From NCBI GenBank assembly GCA_003223215.1, contig QHYH01000098.1, positions 62,001 through 126,000 of the forward strand: a stretch of DNA of 64,000 bases, read 5' to 3'. The position numbers and the translations under genes were made by a program. Every line of letters begins with the position of its first letter. The first letter of the stretch is position 1. Shown here in pieces: positions 1,243 to 11,129 of the stretch. The notes below the pieces were generated by a model. That model saw only the letters and a program-made list of their open reading frames with translations, had not been told where the DNA came from and did not search any database. The DNA is from Acidobacteriota bacterium. Lineage in GTDB: Bacteria > Acidobacteriota > Terriglobia > Acidiferrales > UBA7541.

Positions 1243-1346
1243 AAAACTGACTCATCCACTTTCATTGCGCGACCTTCTCAAATTGTCGAAAAACGGGCAG
1301 AATCCATGGGTGCAGCTAAGCACGAGTAACGGCTAGACAATTCGGG

Positions 1347-2570
1347 ATGAGAATCAATCCGCAGAGCTTCTTTAATTTTTGCGCCAATCACGCGCCACTG
1401 TTGAGCACGCTGGCGGCGCGCGGCGGGGACTTTTCCGAGGCGGAAGCCATGCGGTTGATTCGCGCCAATCCTGGCATTGGCGAGGAGTTGCCCGAAACAG
1501 CGTGGCGGCGACTGCGCGAGCTGCAGATTCTCATTCCCACCGAACCCGGCAGTGAAGTCTTCTTCATGGCCGAACCAGTGGCGAGACTGCTTAACTATTT
1601 GTTCAATGAAGCGAACCCTGCTACGCCAGAAATAATTTGCGGTTACGTCGCGTCACTCGAAACCGTCAATAAGCAACTCGCCGGCGCATTGGATGACGAG
1701 GATGTACAACGCATCAGTTCAGCTTTCGAGGAAATCAGCCAGACATTGCGACGAATCCATGCCGACCTGAATGAGACGCAGAGTGCGATTCTAGCTGAGG
1801 TCACGCGTTACAAAACCGAACGCCCCCGTGTTTCGGTGCGGGAAAAGTATAGGCGCATCGTTTATTGGATGGGCCGTTATGTTGAGCCCATGATTGAAAT
1901 CGTCCGCGTCGACGGGCCGCTGCGCACCGCATTTGACGAAACCGAACGGCTGCTTCATCGCGCCCGCGAAGAGGCGTTGTTCAACGACCACCCAGCACTC
2001 GCACGCAACCTGCGCTTCCTCCGGTTGGTGGGCGCACACGCGCTCCGCGTCTTCACGCAATGCCGGAAGGAGATTCAGCCGCTGTACGAATCGCTTCGCC
2101 GTTCGAGCTTTATCGCCCAAGGCGCGGCTCGGGCGCTAGAACAGTTACAGGCGGTCGGCCTGTCCAGATGGGGCAACGAGCACCTCATCGGAGTCGCTGC
2201 GTGGCGCTATCAGAACGTGCCGAGCGACGCGGCGATTCTGGTGACCTTACGGCGTGTCATCGAATTTCCGCCCGAACTTCCGCCCGTGCTGGAATTGACG
2301 GCAGAAGAGGAAGCGCCGGATGGCCTGGTTCGTCTGCTGTGGCTGGAGTCACTGCCAACCCGTGTGAGTGAAAATCTACCTGTTCAAGATTTGGTGGACT
2401 GGCTCGCGGAGAATTGTTCAGGGCGGGGCATTTCAGATGTGCTCGCCGCTTTCAGCGTTTTGGTGTTTTACCCCGACTTCCACGCTACGTTCACTGATCG
2501 AGAGCCGCGCACTTACGACATCGCCGGTGGTGAAATTACGGCTTCGCCCGTGACCCTAACTTCCACATGA
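1347..2570 (+). CDS. jetA: JetA/MksF-like kleisin subunit of a Wadjet-type SMC complex
   Basis: 407 residues. The N-terminal ~90 residues look like winged helices (RINPQSFFNFCANHAPLLST, then LRELQILIPTEPGSEVFFMA). A long helical middle follows (about 100-260, including EKYRRIVYWMGRYVEPMIEI) and then a C-terminal alpha/beta part. This is the layout of MukF/MksF/JetA kleisins that bridge the two SMC heads. The call rests mainly on context: it is first of four genes, its stop overlaps the next start (ATGA at 2567-2570), and the third and fourth genes are unmistakably an SMC-like ATPase and a TOPRIM nuclease-like protein. The start is ATG 1347 with no clear Shine-Dalgarno. It is shorter and more divergent than type I JetA proteins, so the subtype is left open. 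Confidence 0.72.
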   Translation: MRINPQSFFNFCANHAPLLSTLAARGGDFSEAEAMRLIRANPGIGEELPETAWRRLRELQILIPTEPGSEVFFMAEPVARLLNYLFNEANPATPEIICGYVASLETVNKQLAGALDDEDVQRISSAFEEISQTLRRIHADLNETQSAILAEVTRYKTERPRVSVREKYRRIVYWMGRYVEPMIEIVRVDGPLRTAFDETERLLHRAREEALFNDHPALARNLRFLRLVGAHALRVFTQCRKEIQPLYESLRRSSFIAQGAARALEQLQAVGLSRWGNEHLIGVAAWRYQNVPSDAAILVTLRRVIEFPPELPPVLELTAEEEAPDGLVRLLWLESLPTRVSENLPVQDLVDWLAENCSGRGISDVLAAFSVLVFYPDFHATFTDREPRTYDIAGGEITASPVTLTST

Positions 2571-3145
2571 ATACGCTTCCGCATTTGACGACCATCTTCG
2601 ACCGCCTAAGGCGGGGCTACCATCTCGGCCCGGACGATGAGCCTGAGTTTTCCCGCTTGTGCGAGCGGTTTGACGAATATGCCGCCTACTTCGCGGCGCT
2701 CGGCATTACTCTGGTCCGCCACGAACGCGAGTTTTTCTATTTCAACGCGGAGAGCCCAGAAACCGTGCCGGATACACTGCCGCGTATCGCGGTCTTTTCC
2801 TACATTATGATTGACCATGCCGCTAACCAGGGCCGTCCGATTGATGACTTCATCTTCGGCCAAAACTTCCTCGTGACGGCGCTACCGCATTTCACGCTCG
2901 ACCGCTACACGGCGTTACTAAGACAGGTGGAAGTGCATGACATGAGCGATCTAGAAAACGTGCTAAATCACATGGAGCGAATCGGTTGGGTCAAATGGTT
3001 GTCCAATGACGAATTCCGGTTTCTCCGTCCGTTCCACCGCGTGTTTGGCAAGTGTATCGAACTGACGCAGACTGCCCACGCTCCATCGGCTGACGAATCT
3101 GATTCGGCAAGCACGACTGAGGAAAATCCCGTAAATCGTGAGTGA
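2567..3145 (+). CDS. jetB: JetB/MksE-like subunit (KITE-type winged-helix protein)
   Basis: 192 residues with a 4-base ATGA overlap with the gene before. Predicted helix-turn-helix/winged-helix composition (FSRLCERFDEYAAYFAALGI, then HEREFFYFNAESPE as the wing, then a second wHTH near NVLNHMERIGWVKWLSND) matches the small MukE/MksE/JetB subunit, which dimerises and binds the kleisin. The last ~25 residues are acidic and Ser/Thr-rich and probably disordered. It sits between the kleisin-like and SMC-like genes, the canonical place. The sequence alone would be weak evidence; the operon position makes the assignment good. Confidence 0.72.
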   Translation: MNTLPHLTTIFDRLRRGYHLGPDDEPEFSRLCERFDEYAAYFAALGITLVRHEREFFYFNAESPETVPDTLPRIAVFSYIMIDHAANQGRPIDDFIFGQNFLVTALPHFTLDRYTALLRQVEVHDMSDLENVLNHMERIGWVKWLSNDEFRFLRPFHRVFGKCIELTQTAHAPSADESDSASTTEENPVNRE

Positions 3146-3148
3146 TAG

Positions 3149-5860
3149 GTGCCCATGCCCACTGGTCCACAGCGACTCATCCTCATCCGCTCCGGTTGCT
3201 ACGAATACGCCGAGATCGAACTGACCGGCGCGCTTCAAATTGTTGGCCCGAATAATACCGGAAAAACCGCGCTGATCAATACGCTTCAATTTCTCTACCT
3301 GGACGACCGCCGCCACATGGATTTCGGTTCATACACTGCGGAGCAGACACGCGAGTTCTACTTCCTAAATCAATACAGCTATGTTCTATTCGAGTGTCTT
3401 GGGGCGACTGGTAAATGTGTTATCGGATGGCGCGGCCAGAGCAAGACGAGTGGTGGCGAGCCAGAACGATTCTTCCACGTCGGCCCCTTCGATCGCTCTG
3501 ATTTTCTTGACGGAAGGAATCAAGTCCGCGAGGCACGTGAGGTGAGCGCCAGGCTTGCGTTAAAGCAGTTTCGCGCCATCAAAAGTGCGCAAGAACACAG
3601 GGAATTGTTGTTGCCCGCCGCCAACGGCGACGGACAGGGCCTTGGCGTAGTGGCGTTGCATGATATTGATAAATATCATCACTTCCGCGAGACACTAAAA
3701 ACCTTGCTCGCCTTGAGCGCAATCTCGCAGGAGCAGATGCGCGATCGTCTACTAATGCTGGCCGACATCCCGCCCGACCGCACGGCATTCGACGCGCGCG
3801 AATTGTTCGGTGACGATTACGACCTCATCCGCAACCGGCGCGAGCAGTTACTGAAATTCAAGAAGAACCAGGAACTGGTGGAAAACCTCGTAGCCAGATT
3901 CGCCGAGCGGGAAACGGTTCGTGGCGAATTGGTGTGGCGCTGGACTGACTTGCGAACGAAGTGCCAGAGGTTCGAGAAAGACAATAAGGATACGCTCTTG
4001 AACCTTCGGGAAGCGCAGACCGAGCAGGAAACGAGAATGCAGGATCTCGAAGCGGAAGCGGCTGAGCGGCACAGGAACGTGACCACATTGTCGGAACAAA
4101 AAGGCCAATTACTTGCGCCACTCAAAAGCATCGAGGCCCAAGACACCGAATTCAAAGGGTTTCCGGAGGAATTGGAACGCGCCGCACTCAGCAATCTCAA
4201 GCAGGAGGTTCGGGAGCTCGAACTGCAGCTTGCCAGCGCGGAAGGTGAATCCCGTGAGAAAGCCAAGCGCAATTTCGACGCTCTCGCCGACCGAGTTAAA
4301 CAGAAGGAACACGCCATTGCTCGTTTTGACCATCTTGCGGTCACGGCCCTCCGCAAGCATTTTACGGATGAAGAACTGAACACCATTTTCCGGTTACTCA
4401 ATCGCGATCTGTTGGAGATACCGGTGGGAAAGGGTGGTGTCACGACTTCGCGGCAGGATGAATTGCTTGAGAGGTTGCGTAACTTGCTGGCATGGGTTCG
4501 GAACGGAGTCTATCGGGACGCCATCGTCTCTTTTCCTTTGCCCAAAGCCGGAGAGCCCCTGGCGGGACTGGAAAACCCGGACACTGCTCGCGATCAACTG
4601 GTTGAATACCAGGCCGACCTCAAAAGATGGGGGAAAATCCTCGCCGCTATTGAACAGCGTGAGAACCTTGGGTTTCAATTTAAAGCCAAGCTCGCGGAGG
4701 TCGAGGCGTGCGAAAAACGGCTCTTTCGATTCGAGGAATACCAGAAAGCTAAAGCAGGCGAAGCACGCCTGCGCGCCGAGCTCACGAAGGTTGAAGCCAA
4801 CATCACGGCGGCCAATGAAAGCATTGGCAAGCTTGCCTCACAACGCAAAATCGCCGAGCAAACTAAATCCGATGTGGAAGCCGCCATTAGGAAACACGAA
4901 GACGTTTTCGGCAACGTCATGGATAATTTCCGGCGATGCATCTTTCCTGAATTCTCGGCTAAGCCGCAGATAGCCGAGGGTATCCCTGATGATTTTAATG
5001 CTGCCATTGCGCTGTTCCTCAAGCAGCAGGAGAAGCAAGTCAAGCTGACCGACGAAGTTGCGAGCCTTCTCATGAAGACCGAGCTATGCTTCGGCGACGT
5101 GTTTCGCGGCAGTGACGAATACGAAACGACCGCCGCTTTGCAGGCGGAACTGGAAGCTCTGGCCGAAAAAGAAGAAGCTCTGGCGCGCGACTGGAACGCT
5201 CACATCCACGGGCTGAAAGCGACGTTTGACATTGTTCTGAGAAACCTCGAGGACGTCCGCAGCGCCGCCACAAAAATCAATCGCGCTTTCGCTAGGATTC
5301 AAGTCTCAAACCTCAAAGCCGTGAAGCTCGAAGTCGTCGAGGAGAGTGACTTGGTGAGCTGGATAAAACGTCTCGCCGCGTTCGAGCCGGGCGGGTTATT
5401 TGATGCCGACCCGCAGCAGGAGTCCGCCATTGCCAACTTCCGTCGCAAGATTCAGGACAATCCGGTGATTCGTTTCACGAACCTGTTCATACTTAGTTTC
5501 ACAGTGATAGGCGCGGACAACCAGCGGCACACTTATCACGATTTCCGGCAAATCGAGTCGCATGGCACGACTATCACCCTCAAAGTGCTGTTCAATCTGC
5601 TTCTGTTGAAAGACCAGTTGCGGCGCGATGACTGCGCCGTGCCGTTTTTCCTGGACGAAATTCAAACGCTCGATCCGGCCAATCGGCATGCAATTCTCCG
5701 CACCGCACGGCAGCTCGGTTTTATCGCCATCACCGCCGCTCCCGAAGCCGTCAGCGAGGTAGACACGCTCTACTTCGTACAACCGCAAAACGGTCGGATT
5801 GTCCTGCGCAACAAACATCGGGTGACTGTCAAGAGGGCTCTTGCCGCCGAAAACCGATGA
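3149..5860 (+). CDS. jetC: JetC/MksB-like SMC ATPase
   Basis: 903 residues. The Walker A motif is GPNNTGKT at residues 33-40. Long coiled-coil-like segments (charged heptads about 230-400 and 500-700) are separated by a central hinge-like region. The C-terminal head half has an ESHGTTITLKVLFNLL signature-like segment and Walker B FFLDEIQTLD near 833-842 with catalytic E837. The 'LDEIQTLD' and 'FIAITAAPEA' pattern is that of JetC/MksB/MukB-type ATPases, which extrude DNA loops and, with JetD, cleave plasmids. At 903 residues it is short for the class (MukB is 1486), so the arms are short. The start is GTG 3149 or ATG 3155, three bases after jetB, and it overlaps jetD by ATGA. Confidence 0.88.
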   Translation: MPMPTGPQRLILIRSGCYEYAEIELTGALQIVGPNNTGKTALINTLQFLYLDDRRHMDFGSYTAEQTREFYFLNQYSYVLFECLGATGKCVIGWRGQSKTSGGEPERFFHVGPFDRSDFLDGRNQVREAREVSARLALKQFRAIKSAQEHRELLLPAANGDGQGLGVVALHDIDKYHHFRETLKTLLALSAISQEQMRDRLLMLADIPPDRTAFDARELFGDDYDLIRNRREQLLKFKKNQELVENLVARFAERETVRGELVWRWTDLRTKCQRFEKDNKDTLLNLREAQTEQETRMQDLEAEAAERHRNVTTLSEQKGQLLAPLKSIEAQDTEFKGFPEELERAALSNLKQEVRELELQLASAEGESREKAKRNFDALADRVKQKEHAIARFDHLAVTALRKHFTDEELNTIFRLLNRDLLEIPVGKGGVTTSRQDELLERLRNLLAWVRNGVYRDAIVSFPLPKAGEPLAGLENPDTARDQLVEYQADLKRWGKILAAIEQRENLGFQFKAKLAEVEACEKRLFRFEEYQKAKAGEARLRAELTKVEANITAANESIGKLASQRKIAEQTKSDVEAAIRKHEDVFGNVMDNFRRCIFPEFSAKPQIAEGIPDDFNAAIALFLKQQEKQVKLTDEVASLLMKTELCFGDVFRGSDEYETTAALQAELEALAEKEEALARDWNAHIHGLKATFDIVLRNLEDVRSAATKINRAFARIQVSNLKAVKLEVVEESDLVSWIKRLAAFEPGGLFDADPQQESAIANFRRKIQDNPVIRFTNLFILSFTVIGADNQRHTYHDFRQIESHGTTITLKVLFNLLLLKDQLRRDDCAVPFFLDEIQTLDPANRHAILRTARQLGFIAITAAPEAVSEVDTLYFVQPQNGRIVLRNKHRVTVKRALAAENR

Positions 5861-6708
5861 AGCTTCAAGCCCAAACTCAAATCAAACTGCGTGACTTGGC
5901 TGAAATTGGATCGTTGCCGGAGAGTCAATGCGGTCGCGCGTTTCTGAAACTCCTTGTGCCGCTGCTCGACAGCGGAGTCGTGTGCTGGCAGCGATGTGGC
6001 GTGGGGCGCCGATTGGTCGTGAATGACGCCGATACGTTGAGAGACTTTTACCGGCAGCGCTTTCCCAACGCAGCCTTGCCGAGCGGCGCGGGAAGCCGCG
6101 TTGCCAGCGTGGGCCGTTTCCGCGACACAAAAGCACTAACAAACAGCGAAGGCGAAATTATTTCCCTTCGTGTCTGGCAGAACGAAGCCTTGTTGAAAAA
6201 TGGCAAACCCTTCGACGCAGCACCACTTACCGTCGCACACGGCGTTTTCTCATTTCTGTTCACGCGGAATTGCCCCTACGCATTGGTCGGCAGGTGCGCG
6301 TTGACAGAAAACCCAGCGGTGTTTGTGGCTGCCGAGCAACTCAATCTTGGCGTGGACGCGGTGATTTACGGGCACGGACGGATTTCCAGCCGCGCATTGG
6401 ATTGGCTGGCTTGTACAGCGGATTCCAAGTTCAGTCTGCTGCATCTGCCGGACTACGACCCCTCTGGCCTGTCCGAATTTCAGCGGCTGCACGCACGCCT
6501 GGGAAAACGAGTCGCCCTCTATTTGCCGAGCGACATGGAAGCGCGATTCGCTCGGTTCTCAAACCCAGAATTGGTCACAAGAGCCAACAGCCAAGCCATG
6601 CTTGCGCAACTGCGTTGCTCGGAATTGACGGCGATTCGCCCTGTCGTCGAACTGATTGACCGCTACAATGCCGGACTCGAACAGGAAGCCTTGTTGATTC
6701 CCTCCTGA
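5857..6708 (+). CDS. jetD: JetD-like TOPRIM nuclease subunit of a Wadjet system
   Basis: 283 residues overlapping jetC by ATGA. The N-terminal ~70 residues are helical/winged-helix-like. The C-terminal half carries a TOPRIM fold: the glutamate box LTENPAVF (E151), then GHGRISSRALDWLA, then the DxD box LPDYDPSGLSEF (D199, D201). These are the metal-binding residues that JetD uses to cut DNA after the SMC complex has compacted a circular plasmid. It is clearly smaller than usual JetD proteins (commonly near 380-400 residues), mostly through a reduced N-terminal arm. Topoisomerase VI A-type TOPRIM proteins are the alternative by motif, but the operon context excludes them. Confidence 0.82.
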   Translation: MKLQAQTQIKLRDLAEIGSLPESQCGRAFLKLLVPLLDSGVVCWQRCGVGRRLVVNDADTLRDFYRQRFPNAALPSGAGSRVASVGRFRDTKALTNSEGEIISLRVWQNEALLKNGKPFDAAPLTVAHGVFSFLFTRNCPYALVGRCALTENPAVFVAAEQLNLGVDAVIYGHGRISSRALDWLACTADSKFSLLHLPDYDPSGLSEFQRLHARLGKRVALYLPSDMEARFARFSNPELVTRANSQAMLAQLRCSELTAIRPVVELIDRYNAGLEQEALLIPS

Positions 6709-6811
6709 CTGTAACTCCGACCTAACATTCCCAAGCTGTCATCGGTTCGAGGCTCCATGGCGTCAGTCACACTCGGAAAATGGCAGGACTTTGTTGCGGA
6801 CACGGTGCCGC

Positions 6812-6840
6812 TTGTTTCCAGTATAAGCGCCTGATATAAA
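6812..6840 (+). promoter_or_regulatory. putative sigma-70-type promoter for the Fic gene, leaderless
   Basis: A TTGTTT -35 at 6812-6817 and a TATAAA -10 at 6835-6840 are separated by 17 bases. The ATG of the Fic gene begins only 8 bases after the -10, so transcription would start at or next to the start codon. No Shine-Dalgarno precedes the ATG, which agrees with a leaderless mRNA. Confidence 0.5.
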
Positions 6841-6848
6841 TTGTAGTT

Positions 6849-8093
6849 ATGGCGATGGTTGGAGAAGACAAAGTGCCGGACATTTCAGCGGACTTCGCGG
6901 TGGCAAAGGATCGCGGGGAATCCCCTGCCGAAATGGAGCCCTTGCTCATCGGGGAAACGTCCCGGTTTCGTGGCTCCTTGACCGATTTTGCGGTCGAACT
7001 GGCACAAAAGGCTGCAGGGATTCGTCGGAGTTTGCCTGAGAGTCTTCTGAAGTCTCTGGCTGATCTTGTTCGCTCGATGAACTGCTACTACAGCAATCTA
7101 ATCGAGGGACACTACACGCACCCTATTGACATCGAACGAGCCCTGAAGAACGACTACAGCAAGGACGCAAGCAAACGCGACTTGCAGCTCGAAGCGAAGG
7201 CCCACGTTGCTGTCCAAAAAAGGATTGATGAAGGCGGGCTGAAAGGACGCGCCGTCACAACCGAAGGCATTTGCGAGATTCATCGTCGGTTTTGCGCGGA
7301 GCTACCGGAAGCATTGCTCTGGGTGGAAGACCCCGAGAACATGGAACGAGTTCGCGTCGTCCCCGGAGAATTGCGTAAGCGGGACGTGAAAGTCGGCGGC
7401 CATGTCGCGATCAGCGCTGGTGCTGTGCCGCGATTCCTGAAACGCTTCGAGCACGTGTACAACCATCTCGGCAAAACGGACTCTATTCTGGCCGCTGCTC
7501 CCGCGCATCACCGGCTCTTGTGGATTCATCCTTTTTTGGACGGCAACGGCCGTGTCGCTCGGCTCATGTCGCATGCGTCCCTGCTTGAGACTCTGGACAC
7601 TGGTGCTGTTTGGTCAGTGGCACGCGGCCTAGCTCGCAACGTCGAGGAGTACAAGAGGCACCTTGCCGCTTGTGATGGACCTCGGCGTAACGACCTGGAT
7701 GGCCGCGGGAATCTGAGCGAGGAGGCGCTTGCGGCGTTCACGGAATTCTTTCTGAAGACTTGCATCGACCAGGTGAGCTTCATGGAGAGCCTGATGCAGC
7801 CGGATCGCCTCCGTGCGCGCATACTCCTCTGGGCAGAAGAAGAGATCAAGCTCAAGAATCTTCCTCGGCGCTCTGGGCGTGTGCTCGAAGCGTTGCTCTA
7901 CCGGGGAGAACTGCCGCGTGCCGACGTGTCCAGTGCCGCTGGCGTGGTTGAGCGCCATGCCCGACGCGTTGTGTCTGCGTTGATGGCTCGCGGCGTACTC
8001 GCTTCAGACGGCCCGCGTGCGCCCTTGCGCCTCGTCTTCCCTGCGGCACTTGCTTCTCGCTGGATGCCTGGGCTATTTCCTGAGCGTCCCTAA
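6849..8093 (+). CDS. Fic-domain protein (AMP-transferase family) with N-terminal inhibitory motif and C-terminal winged helix
   Basis: 414 residues. The Fic active-site motif HPFLDGNGRVAR is complete at 227-238 (catalytic H227; DGNGR binds the phosphates). An inhibitory-helix motif of the (S/T)xxxE(G/N) type, SNLIEG, lies at 82-87, so this is a class II Fic whose own N-terminal helix blocks ATP gamma-phosphate binding through E86. The C-terminal ~80 residues (SGRVLEALLYRGELPRADVS) resemble a winged helix, as in many Fic proteins fused to DNA-binding domains. Family proteins AMPylate protein targets; the target here is unknown. It lies 140 bases after jetD on the same strand but has its own promoter. 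ATG 6855 is an alternative start. Confidence 0.88.
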   Translation: MAMVGEDKVPDISADFAVAKDRGESPAEMEPLLIGETSRFRGSLTDFAVELAQKAAGIRRSLPESLLKSLADLVRSMNCYYSNLIEGHYTHPIDIERALKNDYSKDASKRDLQLEAKAHVAVQKRIDEGGLKGRAVTTEGICEIHRRFCAELPEALLWVEDPENMERVRVVPGELRKRDVKVGGHVAISAGAVPRFLKRFEHVYNHLGKTDSILAAAPAHHRLLWIHPFLDGNGRVARLMSHASLLETLDTGAVWSVARGLARNVEEYKRHLAACDGPRRNDLDGRGNLSEEALAAFTEFFLKTCIDQVSFMESLMQPDRLRARILLWAEEEIKLKNLPRRSGRVLEALLYRGELPRADVSSAAGVVERHARRVVSALMARGVLASDGPRAPLRLVFPAALASRWMPGLFPERP

Positions 8094-8251
8094 TTCGACC
8101 AGGAGAAAACGGCTGGGATGGCCGCCTGGTTCTCCAAGCGCTACCCATTCTGACCGCCTAGAACCAAAAGTGCGGCTGCGCAAACCCGAGGTCGCAAGCC
8201 GTGTGGGACAGCAACGCGAAAGAGCTGTACTCATACAGCTAGCGAGTGCAT

Positions 8252-8530
8252 TCAAGGAACTAGGCTGAACGCGCGGCTTTCGGTTCGCAGATGTCCATAG
8301 AGTTTGGCTTCGACCTCGTAGTCGGTCAAGGTGGCCTGGTAACCCGGCTTGGAGAGAGCTACTTCGTATCCAATCCCGTCCCGGTCAACTACGAGAAAAC
8401 AACGGGATTTGCCGAAGTACGCGAGCGCGCCTTGCATGAGCGGCCCGAAGCGCGAAAGCAGTTCAGGACGGTCTACTCTCTTGGAAGAACCGAAAATGTA
8501 CACCCATTCGGGTTGCGAATCGAGGCGCAT
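8252..8530 (-). CDS. small hypothetical protein, last gene of the SIR2 operon
   Basis: 92 residues, starting ATG 8530 just 6 bases after the probable stop (8537-8539) of the gene upstream. The composition is that of a real globular protein (WVYIFGSSKRVDRPELLSRF, FLVVDRDGIGYEVALSKPGY) with an alpha/beta pattern. I recognise no family. Tight spacing suggests co-translation with the nuclease-like gene. The end is followed by about 160 bases of gene-free sequence and then the convergent Fic gene. Confidence 0.5.
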   Translation of the reverse strand: MRLDSQPEWVYIFGSSKRVDRPELLSRFGPLMQGALAYFGKSRCFLVVDRDGIGYEVALSKPGYQATLTDYEVEAKLYGHLRTESRAFSLVP

Positions 8531-9598: not shown

Positions 9599-9940
9599 TC
9601 AAGTCTTGGATCGACTTTGCCCCGACCGTGTTCGGATCACGCGGCGCTTCTGCGGCCCATCCTTTTCCGGCCAAATGCGGTCGTGCCACTCAACGCAGTA
9701 AGCGACATCCTCGTAATGAAGATGAAGATTAGCCCAGTCGAGCTTAGGATGGACCGCTTCAGCAGGCGAGAGCTGACGCCTTGTCCGAATCCGATTGAGA
9801 CTTCGCTTCAGTTGACTCAGGTCGCGCGGGCGGAACGCTCTTAGGTCCCAGATTCTCGCACAGAGAGTGCGAGTCTTATCCTCAAAGGCCACAATGGAGT
9901 GCAGGTTGTAGCGGCTGTCGTCCTTTAGGACCAGTTCCAC
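9599..9940 (-). CDS. hypothetical ORF, possibly the displaced C-terminal part of the SIR2 protein
   Basis: 113 residues from GTG 9940, overlapping the 3' end of the SIR2 frame by about 60 bases. The coding text begins upstream of the GTG (GDPIPPFCVELVLKDDSRYN) and lines up with WLKAMCKG of the SIR2 frame if one G is removed from the GGGG run near 9963-9966. The simplest reading is a single protein of about 510 residues interrupted by a +1 frameshift, with this ORF as its C-terminal domain. A separately translated gene with overlapping start is the alternative. The sequence (YRNLHSIVAF-like, CARIWDLRAF, YEDVAYCVEWHDRIW) matches no family I know. Confidence 0.45.
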   Translation of the reverse strand: MELVLKDDSRYNLHSIVAFEDKTRTLCARIWDLRAFRPRDLSQLKRSLNRIRTRRQLSPAEAVHPKLDWANLHLHYEDVAYCVEWHDRIWPEKDGPQKRRVIRTRSGQSRSKT

Positions 9941-11129
9941 GCAGAACGGAGGGATAGGGTCGCCCCTTGCACATTGCTTTCAACCAACCAAGAACCCAGT
10001 TCGTGCCCGCCGTTGGACTCTTTTCTGGCGCGTTTCCGCCGAAGTCCTGCGGCTGGAGACATGGGTTGCCAGTGAATCTGCCTTTATTTTCCTCGGCAAG
10101 CAGCGGCGCAATCCACGCATGCAACTGTGCCAACGACTTGAACCTGGGGACCGGGTTTTCTTGCCACGGGTCATTTTGGAGAGTAGCCATAGCCAGCGCC
10201 TCGCAACTGCGCCGCGGGTGCCGAAGGAGCCAAGTTGTTCCCAGGTTTGCAGTCGTGCCGTAATGCGTTCGGCACAGGAAACGCTCCCATGTTTTTCTCA
10301 ACTCTTCCTCAGGTTTGATATCGACGATATTGACCTGGGCCAGCTCGAAAGTTGGGTTATCGCCCCATCCGCGCAATAGCAGGTCAACTGCCTCCACATC
10401 CGTTGCTGGGGCAGCATACCCGAAGATCGTGAGCATGTATCCCTGTTGAAGGGATGCCTCCAATTCCTTCCACTCGGCAAATATGAATGGGTCAGATTTG
10501 TAATTTTTCCGGCGCACGGGGTACAGCAAATTGGTGGGCTGGAGAGGCGCTCCACAATTTGAGCAAGTGTCTCCGCTGAATCCCTTGACGCGATCCTTAA
10601 TACAGACGGCTATCGCAACATTTCCATGTAAAAAAAGGATTTTGGGAAGCGGCGCAAATTCCCTATTGCGAAGAAATGCCTTGGCAAGGAACGGATCCCA
10701 ATTGAATGTGGCGATGCAGTCCTTCGGCCGCATCGACAACAAAAGACAGTCATAGAGCGTCGGGGCGTCAGGCAACTGCAACCGGTCGAAGTAAGACCAC
10801 ACTTTGGCTTCGATTTCTTCCCGGAGTGACCTGTGCATTCCAGTTGTGGCAAGTTCATCGTAAAGCGCTTCAAAGTCGACAGTTTTCTGGAATCCCGCGG
10901 CTTGGAAGGCCTGACCGAGTCCAAGGCAACCGACCAAATCAACCATGAGGGGAAGGCGCGATCCGTTTGCATCGCCGTTCGGGAATGCTGCCCTACTGGC
11001 ACCAGCGCCGAGAATCACAACGTGCGGCGACTCATTAACGTTCGTGAGTGGATTAAATGCAGGGAGCTGTGGCATTTCGGACCTCGGCGGCCCGGTCGGG
11101 CCGCGTGGTACCTGTACATTATCCGCCAT
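9882..11129 (-). CDS. SIR2-like domain protein (candidate NAD-hydrolysing defence effector)
   Basis: 415 residues. The sirtuin-type NAD-binding loop ILGAGAS is at 39-45. TFNWDPFL at 141-148 matches the conserved T-x-N-(W/Y)-D of SIR2 domains, and FLHGN at 166-170 supplies the catalytic-type His. A CSNC pair (189-192) suggests a zinc knuckle. FGYAAPATD (236-244) resembles the second nucleotide-binding GxG loop. Bacterial proteins of this sort usually degrade NAD+ in abortive anti-phage systems (Thoeris ThsA, DSR, pAgo-SIR2, SIR2-HerA) rather than deacetylate. It heads a minus-strand operon adjacent to the Jet and Fic genes. The C-terminus after residue ~385 is suspect because of a likely frameshift. 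Confidence 0.75.
   Translation of the reverse strand: MADNVQVPRGPTGPPRSEMPQLPAFNPLTNVNESPHVVILGAGASRAAFPNGDANGSRLPLMVDLVGCLGLGQAFQAAGFQKTVDFEALYDELATTGMHRSLREEIEAKVWSYFDRLQLPDAPTLYDCLLLSMRPKDCIATFNWDPFLAKAFLRNREFAPLPKILFLHGNVAIAVCIKDRVKGFSGDTCSNCGAPLQPTNLLYPVRRKNYKSDPFIFAEWKELEASLQQGYMLTIFGYAAPATDVEAVDLLLRGWGDNPTFELAQVNIVDIKPEEELRKTWERFLCRTHYGTTANLGTTWLLRHPRRSCEALAMATLQNDPWQENPVPRFKSLAQLHAWIAPLLAEENKGRFTGNPCLQPQDFGGNAPEKSPTAGTNWVLGWLKAMCKGRPYPSVLRGTGPKGRQPLQPALHCGL

What the first reader, a model, noticed from the sequence alone, without database searches (positions are those of the whole stretch)
1347..6708. Compact, divergent Wadjet-like anti-plasmid operon (jetABCD)
Four overlapping genes (ATGA, 3-base gap, ATGA) encode a kleisin-like, a KITE-like, an SMC-like and a TOPRIM protein in canonical Wadjet order. 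JetC is only 903 residues and JetD 283, with JetA at 407, all shorter than usual. The catalytic residues remain (JetC GPNNTGKT and LDEIQ; JetD E151, D199, D201). Known biology: Wadjet complexes extrude loops on circular DNA and JetD cuts it, limiting plasmids. Inference: shorter SMC arms could change the plasmid size threshold. It may be a minimal or new subtype.
Basis: partly seen in the sequence, partly recalled or inferred. Interest (0 to 1): 0.75.

Follow-up and report, generated by a model that had tools for sequence, protein, structure and literature searches.

The report
Compact Wadjet-like SMC nuclease operon
Four genes in a soil bacterium encode a small DNA-loop-extruding machine with an attached DNA cutter, probably a defence against plasmids, belonging to a scattered branch that the standard Wadjet detection models recognise poorly or not at all.

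Summary
The operon is real and described almost exactly: kleisin (407 aa), KITE (192), SMC (903) and TOPRIM nuclease (283), all under purifying selection (dN/dS 0.16-0.25 against its nearest relative). It is not peculiar to this genome: the same A-B-C-D block, with an SMC of 898-966 aa and a nuclease of 273-336 aa, occurs in several phyla and on six plasmids. PADLOC's Wadjet type I-III models recognise the SMCs of my seven reference operons at E 1e-227 to 0, but give no JetC match for the window SMC at E<=1. Window SMC and kleisin match NCBI's Mks condensin profiles instead (E 8e-41 and 2e-16, far below the equivalog cut-offs), whose lengths (926/412) are the same, so 'shorter than usual' holds only against Wadjet I-III. 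The nuclease keeps the JetD/topo VI-A TOPRIM fold and acids, but its N-terminal part is one winged helix, 66-136 residues shorter than in the references. Best reading: an anti-plasmid, Wadjet-like, nuclease-armed Mks branch outside types I-III. A 2025 survey may already list such operons unnamed. Function is untested. Published data suggest that arm length affects obstacle bypass rather than a plasmid-size threshold.

The parts
1347..2570 (+). jetA/mksF-like kleisin, 407 aa
   Evidence: NCBIfam NF040857 (a 412-position Mks model that NCBI calls MksB) E 2.2e-16, below its cut-off; 13 of 16 aligned kleisins match it at E<=1e-3; no PADLOC hit at E<=1
2567..3145 (+). jetB/mksE-like KITE, 192 aa
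   Evidence: Pfam PF21980 MksE 106.9 bits against cut-off 27, E 1.8e-30; NF040858 E 3.8e-26, below its cut-off; PADLOC JetB1 only E 0.012
3149..5860 (+). jetC/mksB-like SMC ATPase, 903 aa; model: heads about 1-220 and 720-895, coiled coil 222-394 and 477-715, hinge region about 395-476
   Evidence: NF040859 (926 positions, NCBI 'MksF') E 8e-41, below its cut-off; model mean pLDDT 80.8, pTM 0.49; best solved matches MukB heads Z 24.9; type I JetC Z 19.0-21.9; type II JetC Z 20.6
5857..6708 (+). jetD/mksG-like nuclease, 283 aa: winged helix 2-68, low-confidence linker 77-97, TOPRIM/topo VI-A-like domain about 99-283
   Evidence: Pfam DUF2399 25.9 bits against cut-off 23.4; JetD_C 18.8 against 22; PADLOC JetD2 E 5.5e-6 over residues 149-279 only; model mean pLDDT 86.3; C. 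glutamicum MksG Z 12.8, P. aeruginosa JetD Z 10.8, topo VI-A Z 13.1
6849..8093 (+). Fic-family protein, 414 aa, 140 bases downstream on the same strand; possible passenger or accessory
   Evidence: Pfam Fic E 1.2e-15; PADLOC SoFic E 2.3e-27; shared with the closest relative L009 only, not found in the stretches held for the other 15 of 16 loci scanned

Best explanation
This is a nuclease-armed Mks/Wadjet-type SMC complex. Shown here: four genes arranged so that they can be co-transcribed, intact ATPase motifs, an intact TOPRIM acid set, recurrence as one block, purifying selection. Inferred from characterised relatives: the SMC dimer, closed by the kleisin and bound by the KITE, loads on DNA and extrudes a loop. 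On a small circular DNA the two motors of the dimer-of-dimers meet when extrusion is complete and activate the TOPRIM dimer, which cuts, so that plasmids are lost. Also inferred: because the nuclease has one small winged helix instead of the longer CAP region of JetD, its autoinhibition and docking must differ in detail; and because the arms are short, it should bypass large obstacles on DNA poorly while still extruding loops.
For: Gene order and all four homologies. The TOPRIM domain aligns with MksG (Z 12.8), JetD (Z 10.8) and topo VI-A (Z 13.1). The E, DxD and ExE residues are invariant in 18 nucleases; in C. glutamicum MksG, E236 and D279 are needed for cutting and the paired glutamates E349/E351 are conserved (PMC10123090, passages). 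Walker A, signature and Walker B residues are the same in all 20 compact SMCs. Loci that an SMC search finds carry the nuclease downstream in 17 of 17 cases that could be checked: 6 plasmids, 3 Acidobacteriota including this genome, 3 from the phylum of G299, 3 from the phylum of G303, 2 from that of G304; 2 further loci end at a contig edge. Of the 17, 8 were seen first through the SMC; the other 9 were known from the nuclease before. SMC and nuclease trees share most of their smaller groups. Plasmid restriction by homologous JetABCD/MksBEFG: PMC10586767 and PMC10123090 (passages).
Against: No functional evidence for any member of this branch. The window SMC and kleisin get no PADLOC Jet match at E<=1. 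The profile search of solved structures with the SMC alignment lists MukB (E 1.1e-9) and no JetC at E<=0.01, and MukB is a condensin without nuclease. The Mks condensin of P. aeruginosa works in chromosome organisation (PMC7485682, abstract and passages). The complex itself was not modelled. One locus (L075) shows no recognisable nuclease in the 567 bases left before its contig ends, and in another (L074) the nuclease begins about 680 bases after C. ExE is not complete in L066.
Confidence: 0.75

Rival explanations
1. An ordinary but fast-evolving type I Wadjet, with no separate lineage: it only looks apart because detection models are narrow.
For: 8 of 17 compact SMCs have weak matches to one JetC1 model, best E 6.6e-8. 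Of four compact relatives' nucleases scanned, two match PADLOC (L020, L035), both JetD1 best (E 1.2e-9 and 2.6e-7), and two match nothing at E<=0.01. Profile comparison with type I is clear for C (E 1.8e-17) and D (E 1.2e-11).
Against: All five type I references match JetC1 at E 2e-280 or better. NF040859 is matched by 17 of 17 compact SMCs and by neither of the two type I references scanned. Both trees separate them. Lengths do not overlap: Walker A to signature 765-799 residues in 20 of 20 compact against 940-956 in 5 type I; nuclease part before the catalytic Glu 143-177 in 20 against 247-269 in 5.
Confidence: 0.08
2. A chromosome or replicon condensin that has kept a nuclease for another purpose, such as resolving tangled or replicating DNA, and not a plasmid defence.
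For: Best sequence profiles are the Mks condensin ones; heads resemble MukB most; carried by two plasmids of 904 and 972 kb, where a resident SMC could serve the replicon itself.
Against: Sporadic occurrence (compact SMC in 13 of 1,035 genomes drawn from four phyla) and a block of shared DNA that ends with the operon plus Fic gene suit a mobile defence cassette better than a core condensin. In C. glutamicum the nuclease-bearing MksBEFG is reported not to be involved in chromosome organisation (PMC7083940, passages).
Confidence: 0.1
3. An anti-phage rather than anti-plasmid system, with loop extrusion sensing phage DNA of a given shape.
For: Sits beside a Fic-domain gene with a PADLOC SoFic match; one plasmid carrier has a DUF262 protein nearby, a domain I recall from other defence genes.
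Against: Studied Wadjet complexes cut circular DNA, and linear DNA escapes (PMC10586767, passages). That phages and viral contigs gave no relative says little about what is targeted.
Confidence: 0.05

Closest known systems
Wadjet type I (JetABCD; MksBEFG of C. glutamicum; JetABCD of P. aeruginosa PA14 and E. coli GF4-3)
   Same: Gene order A-B-C-D, same four protein kinds, same TOPRIM fold and catalytic acids, SMC ATPase motifs
   Different: Window SMC 175-191 residues shorter between Walker A and signature, window nuclease 96-118 residues shorter before the catalytic Glu, than five type I references; no DUF3322 match; not recognised by JetC1 models at the level of type I references
Wadjet type II and type III
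   Same: TOPRIM nuclease beside a kleisin-KITE-SMC set
   Different: SMCs 1400 and 1480 aa and nucleases 424 and 369 aa in my one reference each; profile comparisons with the compact SMC are weak (E 0.002 and 2e-4). In the SMC tree the type III row falls on the compact side of the deepest branch (100/97), on a long branch
Mks condensin family of NCBIfam (NF040857/8/9; that P. aeruginosa MksBEF is the example behind it is from memory)
   Same: Kleisin and SMC lengths and best sequence profile matches
   Different: Scores far below the equivalog cut-offs (139.8 against 1900 bits for the SMC); a nuclease gene is present, whereas the P. aeruginosa complex is described as having probably lost JetD (PMC10586767)
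MukBEF
   Same: Heads most alike in structure (Z 24.9) and best hit of the SMC profile among solved structures
   Different: MukB is 1482 aa; no nuclease (PMC7617805, passages)
Topoisomerase VI-A / Spo11
   Same: TOPRIM domain Z 13.1 and 11.6
   Different: No tyrosine in the N-terminal domain is invariant or 90% conserved in 18 sequences

Membership tests
Wadjet (JetABCD) in the broad sense / MksBEFG | Operon of kleisin, KITE, SMC and TOPRIM nuclease genes | tested here: met
   same block in relatives
Wadjet (JetABCD) in the broad sense / MksBEFG | Catalytic residues of SMC ATPase and TOPRIM nuclease | tested here: met
Wadjet (JetABCD) in the broad sense / MksBEFG | Restriction of circular plasmid DNA, ATP-dependent | not testable with these tools
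   Needs an experiment
Wadjet (JetABCD) in the broad sense / MksBEFG | Nuclease with long N-terminal CAP region before TOPRIM (DUF3322 in MksG) | tested here: not met
   143-177 residues before the catalytic Glu in 20 of 20 compact nucleases against 217-287 in 7 type I-III references; no DUF3322 match at E<=1e-3 in 18
Wadjet types I, II, III as modelled in PADLOC-DB 2.0.0 | Strong match of SMC to JetC1, JetC2 or JetC3 models | tested here: not met
   Window SMC: none at E<=1. Compact set: at most 8 of 17 match any one JetC model at E<=1e-3, best E 6.6e-8. Controls: type I five of five at E 2e-280 or better, type II E 0, type III E 7e-227
Mks condensin (NCBIfam equivalogs NF040857/8/9) | Score above curated cut-off | tested here: not met
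   59.6 of 750, 92 of 400, 139.8 of 1900 bits
Mks condensin (NCBIfam equivalogs NF040857/8/9) | SMC matches the Mks SMC profile, and other Wadjet-group SMCs do not | tested here: met
   17 of 17 compact SMCs match NF040859, best E 2.3e-98; 0 of 6 other Wadjet-group SMCs (two type I, one II, one III, two other) at E<=1e-3
Mks condensin without nuclease (P. aeruginosa MksBEF) | No nuclease gene | tested here: not met
   D is present
Topoisomerase VI-A | Catalytic tyrosine in the CAP domain | tested here: not met
   No N-terminal tyrosine among invariant or >=90% columns of 18

The most novel reading that the evidence does not exclude
A fourth Wadjet class: a nuclease-armed relative of the P. aeruginosa-type Mks condensin, with the shortest SMC arms among the Wadjet-group SMCs I compared and a nuclease reduced to one winged helix plus TOPRIM. 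It would be the living form of the proposed intermediate from which nuclease-free MksBEF arose by losing its cutter, and would extrude and cut circles with a different, simpler nuclease switch and little obstacle bypass.
Probability: 0.35. Interest if true: 0.7.

Novelty: new variant of a known kind. Interest (0 to 1): 0.5.

Why it matters
[quoted passage not shown] A branch with Mks-condensin-like SMC and kleisin that still carries a JetD-like nuclease is the kind of form that idea predicts, and makes it testable by phylogeny and by experiment. The short arms give a natural test of the report that hinge and distal coiled coil are dispensable for loop extrusion. The reduced nuclease shows which part of JetD may be enough for cutting. 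Practically, searches that rest on PADLOC 2.0.0 models would probably miss such operons (I ran the models, not PADLOC's system rules); in the five annotated plasmid records the genes are labelled 'hypothetical protein'.

Tried and rejected
Minimal system private to this genome: rejected, the block recurs. Missing nuclease in one locus (L065): at first no D open reading frame was listed because of my non-overlap filter; tblastn then found it over 4156-4962, in an open frame that I read from an ATG at 4132 to the stop at 4974. Phage carriage: no match in phage records with the SMC; in viral contigs the nuclease alignment gave one pattern stretch, not confirmed. Rfam and tRNA scans of the window: nothing. 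Promoter and terminator scan: about as many as in shuffled sequence. Base composition of 1-24000: no island boundary seen. Sequence searches of solved structures with the nuclease found nothing relevant; the fold search did. Rows dropped before counts: L005/L008 (weak hit in a 631-aa ORF that I take as unrelated); L011, L019, L022 (contig edges); L033 (no hit); L067-L069 and L071 (other short-nuclease operons) and L077-L079 (partial, weaker matches) are kept out of the compact counts. L074-L076 are in the nuclease count but not in the trees or length figures.

What I read of the literature does not name such a branch: searches 'Wadjet/JetC/JetD/type II', 'MksBEF/MksG/Wadjet', 'Wadjet/subtype/phylogen/JetABCD/MksBEF', 'pMPPla107/Wadjet', 'MksBEF/Pseudomonas aeruginosa/subfamil/coiled-coil/plasmid', 'MksBEF', 'Wadjet/type IV', 'MksB/MukB/Wadjet/phylogenetic tree/JetC'; of the papers listed I saw passages of PMC10586767 (and its section 7), PMC10123090, PMC10512200, PMC7485682, PMC12647877, PMC12287153, PMC7083940 and PMC7617805, the rest as listings only.

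Limits: the trees hold one type II and one type III reference and five type I (two nearly identical), and no P. aeruginosa MksBEF sequence, which I did not obtain. The tree program warned of long branches and of odd letter make-up in several rows. The hinge type (with or without channel) was not determined.
Full report
What is there. One search confirms four tightly packed genes at 1347-6708, and one search shows the junctions as described. One search gives a MksE match for B well above the Pfam cut-off and a DUF2399 match for D just above it (25.9 against 23.4 bits); JetD_C reaches 18.8 against 22 bits. One search gives E 2.2e-16, 3.8e-26 and 8e-41 for A, B and C against NCBI's Mks condensin models, whose lengths are 412, 232 and 926 positions. 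All three scores are far below the equivalog cut-offs. (NCBI calls the 412-position model MksB and the 926-position model MksF, the reverse of the usage in the papers I read in part.) One search gives PADLOC Jet matches only for D (JetD2, E 5.5e-6, C-terminal half) and, very weakly, B (E 0.012).

The host. The window lies in an 8.8 Mb genome. Its nearest operon relative is titled Acidobacteria gp2 (86% identity in D), and two genomes that labels 'same phylum' have contigs of the same length and match as records titled Acidobacteria, so I take the host as Acidobacteriota.

Relatives. The nuclease alignment found 14 loci in the genome collection. Adding the SMC search of plasmids and of a sample of four phyla, I assembled 20 SMCs of 898-966 aa and 20 nucleases of 273-336 aa, largely from the same loci. 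Carriers named are Acidobacteriota, Verrucomicrobiota, Elusimicrobiota, Candidatus Fermentibacterota, a Candidatus Aegiribacteria, Thermodesulfobacteriota and Chloroflexota; plasmid carriers are Salinibacter (76 kb), Halioglobus (156 kb), Neptuniibacter (172 kb), Polaromonas (190 kb) and two Pseudomonas (904 and 972 kb). The branch is rare: compact SMCs in 3 of 297 genomes (by the NF040859 profile), 4 of 240 (where 7 matched in all), 4 of 247 (6 in all) and 2 of 251, the last three by the SMC alignment; this genome and the centres G299, G303, G304, as well as G305, G109 and G115, were known carriers and are counted. The window SMC finds 6 of 72,556 plasmid records; two further queries found the same six or five of them plus one partial match.

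The nuclease goes with the SMC. Loci found through the nuclease cannot be used to ask this. SMC searches returned 19 compact loci, of which 17 have enough downstream sequence; 17 of 17 carry the nuclease. Only 8 of these 17 were seen first through the SMC (four plasmids, G420, G434, G937, G838); the other 9 had already been found by the nuclease or are the window itself. In L074 (G937) the nuclease begins about 680 bases after C. The two uncheckable loci end 136 bases (L045) and 567 bases (L075) after C; in the latter no nuclease was recognised.

Not type I, II or III as modelled. Controls are operons fetched here. The SMCs of five type I operons match JetC1 at E 2.3e-280 or better, that of one type II operon JetC2 at E 0, and that of one type III operon JetC3 at E 6.9e-227. 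Their nucleases, where scanned (L064, L034, L063, L070; L031; L062), match JetD1, JetD2 and JetD3 at E 1e-86 or better. Of 17 compact SMCs at most 8 match any one JetC model at E<=1e-3, best E 6.6e-8, and 17 match NF040859, best E 2.3e-98; none of six other Wadjet-group SMCs does at E<=1e-3. In the SMC tree the 20 compact rows form a clade (98/97); the type III row lies on their side of the deepest branch and types I and II on the other. In the nuclease tree 24 short nucleases, including those of two other operon kinds described under 'noticed', separate from 7 type I-III rows (95/91).

Anatomy. From the Walker A lysine to the signature serine the compact SMCs have 765-799 residues (20 of 20), type I 940-956 (5), type II 1204 and type III 1292. 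The model of the window SMC (mean pLDDT 80.8, pTM 0.49) shows heads, two coiled-coil stretches and a hinge region of about 80 residues; the heads resemble MukB (Z 24.9) somewhat more than type I JetC (Z 19.0-21.9) or type II JetC (Z 20.6), and the sequence profile finds MukB (E 1.1e-9) and no JetC among solved structures. Before the catalytic glutamate the compact nucleases have 143-177 residues (20 of 20), type I 247-269, type II 287 and type III 217. The model of the window nuclease (mean pLDDT 86.3, pTM 0.65) is one winged helix (2-68), a low-confidence linker (77-97) and a TOPRIM domain that matches topo VI-A (Z 13.1, 175 residues, 3.4 A), C. glutamicum MksG (Z 12.8, 154 residues, 3.0 A; its residues 216-377) and P. 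aeruginosa JetD (Z 10.8, 161 residues, 3.6 A; its residues 206-371). So about 95 residues stand where those two nucleases have about 205-215. The acids E151, D199, D201 and E277 are present in all 20 compact nucleases, E275 in 19.

Mechanism. In characterised systems JetABC is thought to extrude loops and JetD to cut when a circle has been fully extruded; linear DNA and circles above about 100 kb escape (PMC10586767, passages and section 7). All catalytic parts for this are present here. That the window operon does it is inference. The review reports that JetD contacts an IFDR motif near the N terminus of JetB; the window B has IFDR at residues 10-13, but only 4 of 17 aligned B proteins do, so I give it little weight. 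On arm length, PMC12647877 (passages) reports that hinge and coiled coil up to the elbow are dispensable for extrusion but essential for obstacle bypass, and that channel-less Wadjet II, most Wadjet III and MukB tend to have longer arms. The compact SMC is therefore predicted to extrude but to bypass obstacles poorly unless its hinge has a channel, which I could not determine. Megaplasmid carriers would be too large to be cut themselves; that is inference, and an operon of this size is in any case likelier on a large plasmid.

Mobility and selection. Window and L009 share 87.5% DNA identity from 1251 to 6720 and 86.5% from 6877 to 8175; against the whole window and 10 kb upstream there is otherwise one 25-base match. 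So the operon plus the Fic gene behaves as one block. dN/dS between them is 0.20, 0.24, 0.16 and 0.25 for A-D and 0.08 for Fic. Upstream, outside the window, lie three adjacent tyrosine recombinase genes and a fourth integrase-like one (L032).

Novelty. PMC7617805 (passages) surveyed the Wadjet group in over 250,000 genomes with filters (MksB above 890 aa, MksF 400-1200, MksE 150-800, optional MksG) that the window operon's lengths would pass, and notes that several members lack the nuclease. Its operon list was out of reach, so these operons may be listed there without a name. I therefore call it a new variant of a known kind, not a new kind.

Noticed in passing
L031 (G000:C118), JetC-like 4097-8299, JetD-like ending 9570: The same genome carries a second, ordinary Wadjet of type II on another contig: SMC 1400 aa (JetC2, E 0) and nuclease (JetD2, E 5e-130).
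   Followed up: partly
L067, L068, L069 (genomes of the phylum of G299): A second short-nuclease operon kind: SMC 1202-1226 aa with a nuclease of 285-299 aa; the one SMC scanned (L068) has a best JetC match of E 1.2e-4; of five groups compared it is nearest to the compact branch by profile.
   Followed up: partly
L071, 4500-11018 (plasmid pBASL58, record about 711.5-718.0 kb): A third arrangement on a plasmid that also carries the compact operon: genes of 1265, 213, 412 and 285 aa, read by size as order C-B-A-D, with a short TOPRIM nuclease; no JetC model match for the SMC.
   Followed up: partly
window 6849-8093: Fic-domain protein (PADLOC SoFic) directly downstream, co-conserved with the operon in the closest relative only.
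   Followed up: partly
L032 6393-9677 (contig C85, upstream of the window): Three adjacent, same-strand tyrosine recombinase genes (336, 326, 435 aa), like the 'recombinase in trio' elements known to me from memory.
   Followed up: no
window 5857-6708, residue Y171 of D: A tyrosine 20 residues after the catalytic Glu (Tyr in 12 of 18 aligned, Phe in 3); C. glutamicum MksG has its proposed catalytic Y258 22 residues after E236 (PMC10123090, passages). Not compared in structure.
   Followed up: no
window 9882-11129: 415-aa protein with a GAGAS motif near its start, no Pfam match at E<=0.01; possibly another defence gene.
   Followed up: no
NCBIfam NF040857 and NF040859: The model names put MksB on the 412-position model that matches the kleisin and MksF on the 926-position model that matches the SMC, opposite to the papers read here.
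   Followed up: no
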